64,000 nucleotides of DNA from Cytophaga hutchinsonii ATCC 33406 (GTDB lineage Bacteria; Bacteroidota; Bacteroidia; Cytophagales; Cytophagaceae): assembly GCF_000014145.1 (NCBI RefSeq), contig NC_008255.1:2992001-3056000 (forward strand), given 5' to 3'. The translations under genes were made by a program, and so were the position numbers. The notes under the pieces were generated by a model that saw only the letters and a list, made by a program, of their open reading frames with translations, had not been told where the DNA came from and made no database searches. This document shows positions 8,864 through 13,153 of the stretch, piece after piece. Every line of letters begins with the position of its first letter. Position 1 is the first letter of the stretch.

Positions 8864-9384
8864 TTCGTTTCTGATTTAGTTTTTTCCAATACATTGCTCG
8901 CTACCCAGCCTGCCCCAACCAACACAACTAACAGGAAGATTGCGACAACTTCAAAGACAACAATATGCTCTGTGATCCATAAATAACCGGTATATTTGGT
9001 AATGCCTTTTTCATCATACGGAGATGTGTGCAGCTGCGGATACTTGAAGGAAAGGTCGGATAATAAGAACAGCAAGCCCACAGCAAGTACAACTACTGTT
9101 ACAATGGAAAGCAGTATATGTTTCTTTTCAAAATACGATTCCGGGTCGCGGTAGGTGTATAAAACACCAAACAATAATAAGATCAAGACACCACCCACAT
9201 ATACTACTAATTGTACAACAGCTAACAGATCAGAACCCGCAATCACAAACAGAGCAGCAACGCCCAGCAAGCTAGACATCAATGCAATGGCTGCATACAC
9301 TACATTACGTGTAAAAAGTATTACCAAAGCGGAACTGAGTAATTGTATAGCGAAGAAAAAGAAAACGATTTCGATCATTGTCAT
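8860..9384 (-). CDS. nuoJ: NADH-quinone oxidoreductase subunit J
   Basis: 174 aa, five predicted membrane helices. Residues VVQLVVYVGGVLILLLFGV match the NuoJ helix 3 region, which contains the pi-bulge important for coupling. It overlaps nuoI upstream and nuoK downstream by four bases each. Confidence 0.95.
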   Translation of the reverse strand: MTMIEIVFFFFAIQLLSSALVILFTRNVVYAAIALMSSLLGVAALFVIAGSDLLAVVQLVVYVGGVLILLLFGVLYTYRDPESYFEKKHILLSIVTVVVLAVGLLFLLSDLSFKYPQLHTSPYDEKGITKYTGYLWITEHIVVFEVVAIFLLVVLVGAGWVASNVLEKTKSETK

Positions 9385-10664
9385 GCGTTTGTTTCTCCTC
9401 CTTCCTCAGTTTTTTTAGGAATAATGGGTTTCATGACGGGCTTCATGATTGGTTTAGGCATGGCTGCAGGCTTAGCTTCTTCTGCCGGAGCGTCTGATTG
9501 ATCTGAAGCTGGAAGATCCATTGCCGGACTTGCCGTTTGCTGTGTAGATTCCGGTGCAGGTTCCTTTGGTATCAAGGGCTTCATGACCGGTTTCATTATT
9601 GGCTTTGGCTTAGCCGCTGGTTGTAGGTGTTGCGCCGGTGCTGCCGTCTGCTCAGAAGCAGGAACGTCAGTTGCCGGATTTACTGCCTGTTCTTCAGATT
9701 CCGCTACAGGGGCCTTTGGTATCACAGGCTTCATGACCGGTTTTACCTGTGGCTTCGGTGTACCTGCTTCGGTAGAAGCTGCTGGCTCATCTGCTGGTTT
9801 AGTTTCTGAAGTTTCTTCTGATGAAGTTTCCGTAATAGATTTCTTCGCTGGTATTACAACCTTTGGCTTAAACACGGGCTTCGGTACTGCCGGTTTTTCA
9901 GCTGCTGTATCTGAAGATGCTGATGCTTCTTCCGCCTTTGCAGGTGTTGTGTTTTCTGCCGCTGCATCAACTGCTGCTTTCTTTACCGCCGGTATCGCTA
10001 CCTTTGGTTTGAATGCCGGTTTCGGTGCAGCTGTTGCTGTATCTGTGGTTGCTTCGCCTGCTTCAGGCACCGGTTTTGCAGCCGCTGCTTTTTTCGCTTT
10101 TTCTTCTGCAACCAATACTTCCATTTCTTCTTTCTTCAACACACCTTCCGCAGGACTTAATTCTGCAAAGTGATAGACCATGTTACGCACATCGTATTCA
10201 CTGAAGTCGTATGTCTTGGTCATGGTTAAACATTCGGTCGGACAAACCGTTGTGCATAACCCACAGAAGCAGCACTTCGCCATGTCGATGTCAAACGTAG
10301 CTGCATAGATCCGCTTCGTACTGCCGTCGGATGTTTTACCGATTTCAACCGGAGATTTTATAGGCTCTATTTCTATGCAGTTCACCGGACAAACTTTTGC
10401 GCACAGATCGCATACAATACAGTCGTCTACTTCGTTATGCAAACGGTACCGTCCGTTATCCGGCACGGGAATGGATTCGTGCGGATACAGATTTGTTACA
10501 ATACCATCTTTGTGTGTGAAATAATCCGCATCCATAACGCCAACCTGCGGCTTACGCTTCACGCCTATGGAAACAAAAAAGTGTTTCAGCGTCAGACGCA
10601 ATCCGATTGCCATCGATTGAACCGATACAATAAATAAGCGAATATTTGAAATACGTCTAGCCAT
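9381..10664 (-). CDS. nuoI: NADH-quinone oxidoreductase subunit I with long repeat-bearing C-terminal tail
   Basis: Residues 1-~185 are a normal NuoI. Two CxxCxxCxxxCP clusters (Cys82/85/88/92 and Cys131/134/137/141, with Cys96 and Cys145 close by) bind the two 4Fe-4S centres that pass electrons toward quinone. The usual protein ends near residue 180. Here ~240 extra residues follow, rich in Ala, Pro, Lys and Glu. The tail holds five copies of a PKPxxKPxxxPxIPK-like unit at about residues 214, 261, 303, 353 and 403, spaced 42-50 residues apart; the last two are nearly identical (PKPIMKPVMKP). The reading frame runs through without a break and overlaps nuoJ by four bases, so the tail seems to be a real part of the gene. 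It is probably disordered; its function is unknown. Confidence 0.93.
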   Translation of the reverse strand: MARRISNIRLFIVSVQSMAIGLRLTLKHFFVSIGVKRKPQVGVMDADYFTHKDGIVTNLYPHESIPVPDNGRYRLHNEVDDCIVCDLCAKVCPVNCIEIEPIKSPVEIGKTSDGSTKRIYAATFDIDMAKCCFCGLCTTVCPTECLTMTKTYDFSEYDVRNMVYHFAELSPAEGVLKKEEMEVLVAEEKAKKAAAAKPVPEAGEATTDTATAAPKPAFKPKVAIPAVKKAAVDAAAENTTPAKAEEASASSDTAAEKPAVPKPVFKPKVVIPAKKSITETSSEETSETKPADEPAASTEAGTPKPQVKPVMKPVIPKAPVAESEEQAVNPATDVPASEQTAAPAQHLQPAAKPKPIMKPVMKPLIPKEPAPESTQQTASPAMDLPASDQSDAPAEEAKPAAMPKPIMKPVMKPIIPKKTEEGGETNA

Positions 10665-12000: not shown

Positions 12001-12040
12001 TTTCACGTTTCTTGGGGCGATACCTCTTTCATACTTTCAT

Positions 12041-12184
12041 CTTCTTGGGGCGATGCCCCAAGTTATACTATGTCAGACTTTCAGTCTGATTGTTTTTTCA
12101 TATACAACTGTACCTTATGAATTGGAATGTTGAGGTTAAGATGAGGTGATGGTTAGAGAGCGGATTATCCCGGGAGTTATAACA
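12041..12184. repeat. Hairpin-rich ~145-bp dispersed repeat, copy A
   Basis: Aligns along its length with 12899-13043. It holds an 8-bp stem CTTGGGGC/GCCCCAAG with loop GAT (12044-12062) and a stem CAGACT/AGTCTG with loop TTC (12074-12088). A shared tail reads GATGGTTAGAGA and CGGATTATCCC. Same orientation as copy B, on the other side of the toxin-antitoxin pair. Confidence 0.85.
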
Positions 12185-12185
12185 T

Positions 12186-12198
12186 GCCGCGGCGGCGG
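12186..12198. repeat. GC-rich palindrome-like block GCCGCGGCGGCGG
   Basis: A 13-base all-G/C block in an AT-rich gap, directly after repeat copy A. It resembles the blocks at 53687, 54133 and 54273. Confidence 0.55.
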
Positions 12199-12352
12199 AT
12201 ATAGCATAAATCAAGTATATAATATCAGATGCACCGCTCCAAATGAGGTTTTTTTGATATTTTAATTTTAGTAATAGCAATAAGTACCTAATTGAGAATC
12301 TTCAATACTATTTTTTACGTATAGAACAAAAGCAAATCACAACAAAATTTAG

Positions 12353-12360
12353 TATCTTTA
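12353..12360 (+). promoter_or_regulatory. Possible -7 box TATCTTTA for the toxin-antitoxin pair
   Basis: It resembles the Bacteroidota -7 consensus TAnnTTTG but ends only three bases before the ATG at 12364, which would make the message leaderless. Weak call. Confidence 0.25.
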
Positions 12361-12363
12361 TTT

Positions 12364-12603
12364 ATGGCAACTTCAATAAAACAAAAACTTCATACATTGA
12401 TTGACACTATAGATAACGAATCTTTACTGACTCAGGTGTATGAACTTATATATAAAAAAAGTTCTTCTAAAGAGGGCGATTTATGGAATAAATTAACTTC
12501 TCAGCAACAACAGGAAGTATTGCTAAGTCTGGAAGAAAGCAACGATACAAACAATTTAATCTCTAACGACGACGTTAAAAAATCACATAAAAAATGGCTC
12601 TGA
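12364..12603 (+). CDS. Putative antitoxin of a ParE/RelE-type pair
   Basis: 79 aa and mostly helical (LHTLIDTIDNESLLTQVYELI then WNKLTSQQQQEVLLSLEES). I do not recognise a DNA-binding fold with confidence. The layout, short helical sequence and position ahead of a toxin-like gene match the small antitoxins common in Bacteroidota that pair with ParE/RelE toxins. Its last ten bases overlap the next gene, so the two are probably translationally coupled. Such antitoxins usually bind the toxin through the C-terminal part and repress their own promoter; neither can be shown here. Confidence 0.7.
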   Translation: MATSIKQKLHTLIDTIDNESLLTQVYELIYKKSSSKEGDLWNKLTSQQQQEVLLSLEESNDTNNLISNDDVKKSHKKWL

Positions 12604-12884
12604 AAATTTTTTGGACTAAAAGAGCTTTAGCCAATTTTGATAAAATACTTGAATATTTAGAAGAAGATTTCGGAGAAATTCCAACCAAAGCATTTGCAAT
12701 CAAGGTCCATAATTTTTTAGATAACCTTAAAGACTTCCCTGAACTTGGAACACTTCAACATAGCGATAAGCAAATCCGAGGATTTGTAATCGTAAAACAA
12801 GTAACTATTTTTTATAAAGTATACGATGATCATGTTCGTATACTGAATCTATTTAATAATAGACAAGATTCAAAGAAGAAGTAA
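12594..12884 (+). CDS. ParE/RelE superfamily toxin
   Basis: 96 aa. The start IFWTKRALANFDKILEYLEE and the end VRILNLFNNRQDSKKK follow the ParE/RelE fold pattern: early beta strand, helical hairpin with ALANFDKI, then a sheet ending in ILxLFNNRQD. RelE members cut mRNA on the ribosome and ParE members poison gyrase; the sequence does not decide between them. Overlaps the antitoxin gene by ten bases. The pair sits between two copies of a dispersed repeat, which suggests it arrived with, or inserted among, repeat DNA. Confidence 0.82.
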   Translation: MALKIFWTKRALANFDKILEYLEEDFGEIPTKAFAIKVHNFLDNLKDFPELGTLQHSDKQIRGFVIVKQVTIFYKVYDDHVRILNLFNNRQDSKKK

Positions 12885-12898
12885 ACCCTTAGCTCTAT

Positions 12899-13043
12899 CA
12901 TTCTTTGGGCAATGCCCAAAGTTGTAATATTGCAGACTTTCAGTCTGAGTTGTCTTTTCATAGACAACTGTATCTTATGTAATTGAGATGGCAAGGTCAA
13001 GATGAGATGATGGTTAGAGATCGGATTATCCCTGAAGGATAAC
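12899..13043. repeat. Hairpin-rich ~145-bp dispersed repeat, copy B
   Basis: Second copy of the repeat at 12041. Its first stem is CTTTGGGC/GCCCAAAG with loop AAT (12903-12921), so relative to copy A both sides of one base pair changed together. The second stem CAGACT/AGTCTG (12933-12947) is identical. A third stem AGTTGTCT/AGACAACT (12948-12969) is perfect here and decayed in copy A. It begins 15 bases past the toxin stop and could also end its transcript. Confidence 0.85.
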
Positions 13044-13098
13044 ATATCGGTAGTAAAAAACACCGATATGAAAATTACACAAGGAGCTCCGAAGGAGC
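13043..13098. repeat. Two small inverted repeats (REP-like)
   Basis: CATATCGGT (13043-13051) pairs with ACCGATATG (13062-13070), and GCTCC-GAA-GGAGC (13086-13098) forms a short hairpin. Similar GAGCTCC/GGAG blocks occur near 17395. No gene is seen between 13044 and 13153. Confidence 0.55.
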
Positions 13099-13153
13099 AT
13101 TAAATAATTTTGACTATTGGATAACCTAATTATATATTTTGAATAAAACTCAG

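What the first reader, a model, noticed from the sequence alone, without database searches (positions are those of the whole stretch)
12041..13043. Two copies of a structured repeat bracket a toxin-antitoxin pair, with paired base changes in a stem
Copies at 12041-12184 and 12899-13043 lie in the same orientation on both sides of the module. The first stem is CTTGGGGC/GCCCCAAG in one and CTTTGGGC/GCCCAAAG in the other, so both partners of a pair changed. This argues that the folded form matters, as RNA or as a cruciform or transposase target. The repeats could mediate excision or duplication of the toxin-antitoxin pair.
Basis: seen in the sequence. Interest (0 to 1): 0.68.

Follow-up and report, generated by a model that had tools for sequence, protein, structure and literature searches.

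The report
Double-hairpin repeats tied to a transposase
The two repeats around the toxin-antitoxin genes belong to a scattered family of small folding DNA elements that goes together with one resident transposase gene in many Bacteroidota, and recombination between the two copies probably brought the gene pair in or can take it out.

Summary
Each copy starts with a 46-bp element of two hairpins, followed by about 100 bp of locus-specific sequence duplicated with it. The 46-bp element is REP-like: 19, 31 and 38 matches in three genomes of one genus, none in 16 others. It has compensatory changes and often forms head-to-head pairs. In all three genomes it surrounds one HUH/Y1 transposase gene at the same locus. 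A sister species has one copy and no toxin-antitoxin genes. That copy matches copy 1 on its left and copy 2 on its right (13 of 14 ungapped sites, p 0.004), as recombination predicts. In other genera, relatives of this transposase are flanked by double hairpins of like geometry (21 of 29 loci, 0 of 19 control loci). Their genomes mostly carry dispersed copies (27 of 29, against 14 of 250 genomes without a relative). By its motifs the transposase is 'subclass 1.2', listed in a 2018 survey as having no REPs. Classical RAYT/REP membership fails two tests (GTAG foot, class 2 transposase), so I file it as a new variant.

The parts
12044..12089 (+). REP-like element, copy 1: hairpin 1 at 12044-12062, 10-nt linker, hairpin 2 at 12073-12089
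   Evidence: model R1, 73.0 bits; in the model's training set
12903..12948 (+). REP-like element, copy 2: hairpin 1 at 12903-12921 (carries the paired change), hairpin 2 at 12932-12948
   Evidence: model R1, 63.7 bits; in the model's training set
12090..12185 (+). co-duplicated tail of copy 1, no strong match elsewhere in this genome
12949..13045 (+). co-duplicated tail of copy 2; begins with a 6-bp stem GTTGTC/GACAAC (12949-12954 with 12963-12968)
12011..12024 (+). truncated hairpin of the same kind just upstream of copy 1; a similar one is in the sister species
   Evidence: read by eye
12364..12603 (+). antitoxin-like ORF, 79 aa, no Pfam or NCBIfam match
   Evidence: a similar ORF precedes the ParE homologue in another genus
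12594..12884 (+). ParE-family toxin, 96 aa
   Evidence: PF05016, E = 1.8e-9; 76% identical protein in another genus

Best explanation
Both repeats are members of a REP-like family: 46-bp elements made of two hairpins that a HUH single-strand transposase of the Y1 (IS200-like) superfamily most likely recognises and spreads. The transposase gene itself stays at one fixed locus inside a cluster of these elements. At the nuoH-murI gap the simpler state is one such element with about 100 bp of neighbouring sequence. An AT-rich toxin-antitoxin pair sits there today between two direct copies of that segment, and homologous recombination between the copies links the one-copy and two-copy states. Shown: the family, its folding constraint, its association with the transposase, the one-copy locus and the chimeric site pattern. 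Inferred: cleavage by the transposase, and that recombination rather than chance made the chimera. Not known: whether the pair entered here or left in the sister species.
For: Family: 19, 31 and 38 matches in three genomes of one genus and 0 in 16 others. Compensatory changes: 5 of 15 pairs over 17 copies, 7 of 15 over 70 distinct copies, 98 double-changed cells against 39.0 shuffled. Head-to-head pairs: of 73 of the 88 matches, 16 of 20 neighbours within 200 bp are '+-', 7 of them with 14-19 nt between. Transposase: one full-length Y1 gene with these elements within 200 bp at the same locus in all three genomes; no other Y1 match has one within 2 kb. TA locus: sister species with one copy and no TA; 13 of 14 ungapped diagnostic sites fit copy 1 on the left and copy 2 on the right, permutation p 0.004. 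The TA stretch has GC 0.30 against 0.43 in nuoH and murI; its homology to the pair in another genus covers only 12344-12886, without the repeats. Other genera: 21 of 29 relatives' loci have a double hairpin, 0 of 19 control loci; genomes 27 of 29 against 14 of 250.
Against: The chimera rests on 14 sites in one comparison. Two of the left-hand sites (columns 145 and 157) are the two sides of one base pair, so they are one event. With gapped sites it is 15 of 17 (p 0.006), and one gapped site lies on the wrong side. The left half is the conserved element, so copy 2 may simply have drifted there. There is no outgroup: the third species has neither element nor TA at this locus. The copies differ by 16%, poor substrate for recombination today. 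No biochemistry ties this transposase to the element. Seven other Y1 genes with the same Y-Q-HH motif in these three genomes have no such element near them. 14 genomes have the element and no detectable transposase relative, and only 15 of 115 genomes with a weaker relative have the element.
Confidence: 0.75

Rival explanations
1. Plain segmental duplication of the element plus 100 bp, with the TA pair inserted between the copies independently; the left/right pattern in the sister is chance or uneven drift.
For: The diagnostic sites are few (14), and the left ones fall in the hairpin element, where copy 2 departs from the genus consensus more than copy 1 does.
Against: The order of the sites differs from random at p about 0.004, and the right-hand sites lie in the tail, where no family consensus pulls.
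Confidence: 0.2
2. A composite mobile element: the transposase moved element-TA-element as one unit, like a compound transposon.
For: Direct copies at both ends of foreign-looking DNA.
Against: The co-duplicated 100-bp tail is also at the sister's orthologous site, so the bracketing segment did not arrive with the TA. The TA relative in another genus (G004) has no match to the element in its genome, and its homology ends at the genes.
Confidence: 0.07
3. The Y1 gene is an ordinary IS200-type insertion sequence and the repeats are its decayed ends.
For: NCBIfam scores the sister's orthologue above the IS200/IS605 cut-off (65.5 against 55) and below the REP-associated one (28.7 against 80); the solved structures nearest to the own protein by sequence are IS608-type TnpA.
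Against: At least one gene on each side is shared in all three species, and transposase and neighbour are about equally conserved (82 and 71% against 84 and 80%). Elements number 19-38 per genome and form head-to-head pairs.
Confidence: 0.12
4. The stems act as RNA: terminators, processing sites or a regulator of the TA operon.
For: Copy 2 lies 18 bp after the toxin stop codon, and folding is conserved.
Against: No Rfam match at E <= 1; the family is dispersed in both orientations and goes with a transposase in other genera. A secondary RNA effect is not excluded.
Confidence: 0.08

Closest known systems
REP/REPIN elements with RAYT (TnpA_REP), e.g. Escherichia coli and Pseudomonas
   Same: Short palindromic units, dispersed, often as inverted pairs, around a resident HUH/Y1 transposase gene (their description read in PMC6006769)
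   Different: Two hairpins per unit at fixed spacing; no GT[AG]G within 8 nt upstream of hairpin 1 in 76 of 76 copies; transposase with the IS200-like Y-Q motif and HH, scoring below the NCBIfam REP-transposase cut-off
TnpA_Y1 subclass 1.2 (PMC6006769)
   Same: DHxH, WQ, YIxNQKEHH, 149 aa, Bacteroidota (its table read)
   Different: That table lists 'no' under REP for the subclass; here a clade with these motifs has a REP-like element
TIRYT/TIRtrons, some with double palindromic TIRs (PMC3733652, section 16)
   Same: Y1 transposase flanked by repeats, some self-complementary, that can also occur singly, as dimers or in clusters in the genome
   Different: The text names Pseudomonas, Stenotrophomonas and Acidobacteria and a GGGGWSAS motif or unrelated sequences; its figure with the full list and the double palindromes was not visible to me, so overlap is not excluded
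IS200/IS605 (IS608 TnpA)
   Same: Sequence relative (E 7.6e-7); hairpins near the gene
   Different: The gene here sits at one shared locus in three species and the hairpin units are multicopy on their own

Membership tests
REP family with RAYT | short palindromic unit, multicopy, dispersed | tested here: met
   19, 31 and 38 matches in three genomes at E <= 0.05, lower bounds
REP family with RAYT | inverted pairs (REPIN/BIME) | tested here: met
   16 of 20 neighbours within 200 bp are '+-' (73 of 88 matches)
REP family with RAYT | flanks a resident Y1 transposase gene | tested here: met
   same locus in three genomes; double hairpin at 21 of 29 relatives' loci
REP family with RAYT | GT[AG]G tetranucleotide at the hairpin foot | tested here: not met
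   0 of 76 copies within 8 nt upstream of hairpin 1 and 0 of 76 in the linker; PMC6006769 accepts some REPs without it
REP family with RAYT | transposase scores as NCBIfam REP_Tyr_transpos | tested here: not met
   28.7 bits, cut-off 80, for the sister's orthologue
REP family with RAYT | transposase cuts or binds the REP | not testable with these tools
   needs biochemistry
TnpA_Y1 subclass 1.2 | DH[IV]H, WQ, Y---Q--HH, about 148 aa | tested here: met
   DHMH (own) or DHIH (two relatives), WQ, YIxNQKEHH, 149 aa; motifs compared, no tree made with that paper's set
TnpA_Y1 subclass 1.2 | no associated REP (as published) | tested here: not met
   but seven other genes with the motif in the three genomes do lack it
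IS200/IS605 insertion sequence | gene moves as a unit with its ends | tested here: inconclusive
   shared position in three species speaks against it; no strain series
parDE toxin-antitoxin | ParE-family toxin after an overlapping small upstream gene | tested here: met
   PF05016; the ORFs overlap by 10 bp; the antitoxin has no family match

The most novel reading that the evidence does not exclude
A clade of IS200-like Y1 transposases (by motif within subclass 1.2, published as lacking REPs) is a separate domestication with its own REP system. It uses a double-hairpin element of nearly fixed geometry whose sequence has changed in step with the transposase across Bacteroidota, and these elements serve as recombination points for gaining, losing or amplifying small gene modules such as toxin-antitoxin or immunity genes.
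Probability: 0.5. Interest if true: 0.75.

Novelty: new variant of a known kind. Interest (0 to 1): 0.6.

Why it matters
If right, REP systems arose at least twice within the Y1 transposases, and a group filed as having no REP gets a candidate substrate that can be tested on a gel. Element and enzyme vary together over the 20 loci compared (Mantel r 0.57), which gives natural matched and mismatched pairs for working out how HUH enzymes read hairpins. The window locus adds a concrete case in which such repeats bracket a toxin-antitoxin pair in one species while the sister species has a single copy and no pair.

Tried and rejected
A 145-bp mobile element: rejected, because the tail has no strong match elsewhere in this genome and otherwise lies at the sister's orthologous site, apart from about 15 nt after an element beside the sister's transposase. 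A third stem (12949-12968): 6 bp in copy 2, weaker in copy 1 and in the sister, and the difference in copy 1 is not compensatory, so it is not claimed. Spacer symmetry in the seven tight pairs: only 3 of 7 fold as well as or better than the best tenth of 300 shuffles, not claimed. Weak tail hits at 2587983 and 2588898 (E 1.08) lie in repetitive sequence, chance. Rfam: nothing. TA relatives in named genomes: 4 loci; only L149 (Cyclobacteriaceae) was compared with the window, where the toxin gene aligned and no repeat did. One paper search with five terms on TA pairs and REP-type repeats found none. A pair count on A7 is biased, since most of its rows from other genera were chosen for having stems; it is not used as evidence. 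find_tandem_repeats returned nothing on L146 because its longest period is 500; the array was seen. A fold prediction of the transposase was not run.

Rows dropped: 3 of 20 rows (one spurious, two out of register) before A4. One search kept only units with centre distance 28.0, without duplicates and without L158 and L177. In one search two loci (L164, L181) gave no protein by my pattern, and L158, L170, L174 and L177 were left out of the element list; its similarity measure is crude (units compared from their own ends). In one search, 15 of 88 matches (the weakest) were left out.

Full report
What was checked. The two copies are real: 84% identical over about 145 bp, same orientation, either side of an antitoxin-like ORF and a ParE toxin. 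The genome holding the window is one contig of 4,433,218 bp. From memory that is the size of Cytophaga hutchinsonii ATCC 33406; no call named it, and 'Cytophaga' below stands for the three genomes that the tool puts in one genus (G000 own, G001, G002).

What recurs. A search of the own genome with the first copy returned both copies in full, and eight further places matching only within its first 50 bases (E 6.5e-13 to 5.6e-4), some in alternating orientation. The recurring part is a 46-base unit: stem of 8, loop of 3, linker of 10, stem of 7, loop of 3. Seventeen copies from three genomes align without gaps. Of 15 pairs, 5 show changes on both sides, with 19 double-changed cells against 5.8 in shuffles, and sliding the partners destroys the signal. 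A model from these (R1) found 19 matches in the own genome, 31 and 38 in the two congeneric genomes and none in 16 others at E <= 0.05; 150 candidates per genome were scored, so counts are lower bounds. On 76 matches at E <= 1e-4 in 48 sources (70 distinct), 7 of 15 pairs change on both sides, with 98 double-changed cells against 39.0. That alignment was fitted to the model, but 69 of the 76 rows are 46 long. The window's own change (G-C to U-A in pair 4) occurs once among the 70. GT[AG]G, the classical REP foot, is within 8 nt upstream of hairpin 1 in 0 of 76 copies.

Arrangement. Among 73 of the 88 matches, 20 neighbours lie within 200 bp; 16 are '+-', 3 '-+' (one an overlap artefact) and 1 '++'. 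Seven '+-' pairs have 14-19 nt between the units. This is the REPIN arrangement.

The transposase. PF01797 (Y1_Tnp) gives 20 matches in the three genomes. In each genome one full-length gene has these elements within 200 bp: G000 1667590, G002 C4:34746, G001 C116:18240. In G000 a truncated copy lies beside it; no other match has an element within 2 kb. At least one gene on each side is shared by all three, and the transposase is roughly as conserved as its neighbour (82 and 71% against 84 and 80%), so it looks like a resident gene rather than a jumping one. It is 149 aa with DHMH or DHIH, WQ and YIxNQKEHH. NCBIfam, run on the G002 orthologue, calls it IS200/IS605-like and not REP-associated; for the own protein the solved structures nearest by sequence are IS608-type TnpA, E 7.6e-7. 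The motifs are those of 'subclass 1.2' in PMC6006769 (sections 12 and 18 read, other passages seen). The table there gives 'no' under REP for that subclass, and the text says it generally lacks typical IS200 terminal structures.

Beyond the genus. Relatives at E <= 1e-20 occur in 145 of 395 Bacteroidota genomes, the own one included. The 29 closest other genomes, of 18 genera, were given one locus each. R1 found the element at 11 of 29 (E <= 0.01), and at 0 of 11 other Y1 loci of the Cytophaga genomes. Seven of those 11 share the Y-Q-HH motif, so the element goes with a clade, not with the whole subclass. A scan for any double hairpin, without regard to its letters, found one at 21 of 29 loci (45 units in 93.5 kb), at 0 of 19 control loci around murI and ParE genes (62.7 kb, from other genomes), at 3 of 18 other Y1 loci (7 units, other sequences, spacing 29-35), and at 3 of 3 Cytophaga element loci. 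The distance between the two hairpin centres was 27-29.5 in 43 of the 45, though gaps of 4-16 were allowed; a few of the 45 (in L158, L170, L174, L177) look unlike the rest. Stem sequences differ widely between genera. Element similarity follows transposase similarity: Mantel r 0.57, p 1e-4 over 20 loci; 0.51, p 9e-4 without Cytophaga (17 loci); 0.48, p 0.008 on a thinned set of 16 (crude measure). The three closest transposases outside the genus belong to another class of the phylum, yet carry the elements that score highest with R1.

Copies in those genomes. A wider model (R2, 34 sequences) found matches at E <= 0.001 in 28 of 29 genomes with a close relative and 0 of 20 without. Over the 394 other genomes at E <= 1e-4: 27 of 29 with a close relative, 15 of 115 with a weaker one, 14 of 250 with none (Fisher p 5e-25 for the first against the last). 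Twelve of the 29 supplied training sequences; of the other 17, 15 match. The 14 exceptions gave no relative at 1e-5 in a call without a positive control. Thirteen of them belong to genera (g113, g119, g149) that also hold genomes with both, and 9 are drafts of 150 or more contigs, so loss of the gene or missing sequence may explain part; at least G107 (20 contigs, 100% complete) looks like a true absence. Genomes in these tables are not independent by descent. Within one genus (g68) the three top-29 genomes have matches and the four genomes without a relative have none.

The toxin-antitoxin locus. In the nearest relative (G002, MurI 93% identical) the same nuoH-murI gap holds one copy and no TA pair, and other genes instead. 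Its left flank continues like copy 1's, and its right flank like copy 2's. At 14 ungapped sites where copies 1 and 2 differ and G002 sides with one, the best single switch explains 13 (permutation p 0.004); with gapped sites 15 of 17 (p 0.006). Two of these sites are one base pair. This is what recombination between direct repeats leaves, whether the pair was lost in G002 or gained here by a single crossover; I cannot tell which. G001 has neither element nor pair at this place (no match on that contig). The TA stretch has 30% GC against 43% for nuoH and murI, and the homologous pair in another genus (G004) aligns over 12344-12886 only, the genes and 20 bp. It looks acquired, and the repeats belong to the place rather than to the cargo.

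A parallel. In G001 five related genes stand in a row, three of them identical in an exact 910-bp tandem array, each of the five followed by one element. Next to them is a protein with a stretch that I recall as Hint-like (no call names it). The element may be a passenger there.

Novelty. Papers were searched for RAYT/REP with Bacteroidetes, Bacteroidota, Cytophaga and Flavobacterium. No listed title or abstract start describes REPs for this transposase group. PMC3733652 (section 16 and passages) describes repeats around other Y1 genes (TIRtrons) and is the nearest idea; its figures were not visible. PMC12306157 (passages) lists REP counts for three Bacteroidota species and does not use the words RAYT, tyrosine transposase or IS200. 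PMC11194056 (passages) names a 'RayT' gene in Chryseobacterium; the passages seen mention no repeats. The five-group RAYT paper of 2017 is not held and is known to me through PMC6006769. The library holds open-licence papers only, so the claim is limited to it.

Verdict. The TA bracket is a modest recombination case with fair support. The partnership of transposase and double hairpin across the phylum is the more interesting result; it rests on association and covariation, not on biochemistry.

Noticed in passing
L146 1048-5511 (G001:C57): Five related genes in a row, three identical in a 910-bp tandem array, each followed by one element, downstream of a protein with a stretch recalled as Hint-like; possibly an immunity-gene array.
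   Followed up: partly
L031 1301-1352: Another Y1 gene of the own genome with the Y-Q-HH motif is preceded by two palindromes of a different sequence, centres 32 apart; perhaps a second element type.
   Followed up: no
window 13045-13100: After copy 2 come a further inverted repeat (CATATCGG/CCGATATG) and a GGAGCTCCGAAGGAGC palindrome; a sequence similar to the latter is at the sister's site.
   Followed up: no
window 9381-10664, minus strand: A ferredoxin-like Nuo subunit (name recalled) with a long tail of KPxMKPxIPK-like repeats; the ORF length differs between the three genomes (427, 389, 491 aa).
   Followed up: no
L145 227-430, minus strand: A truncated second copy of the element-associated transposase gene lies beside the full one, with its own element.
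   Followed up: partly
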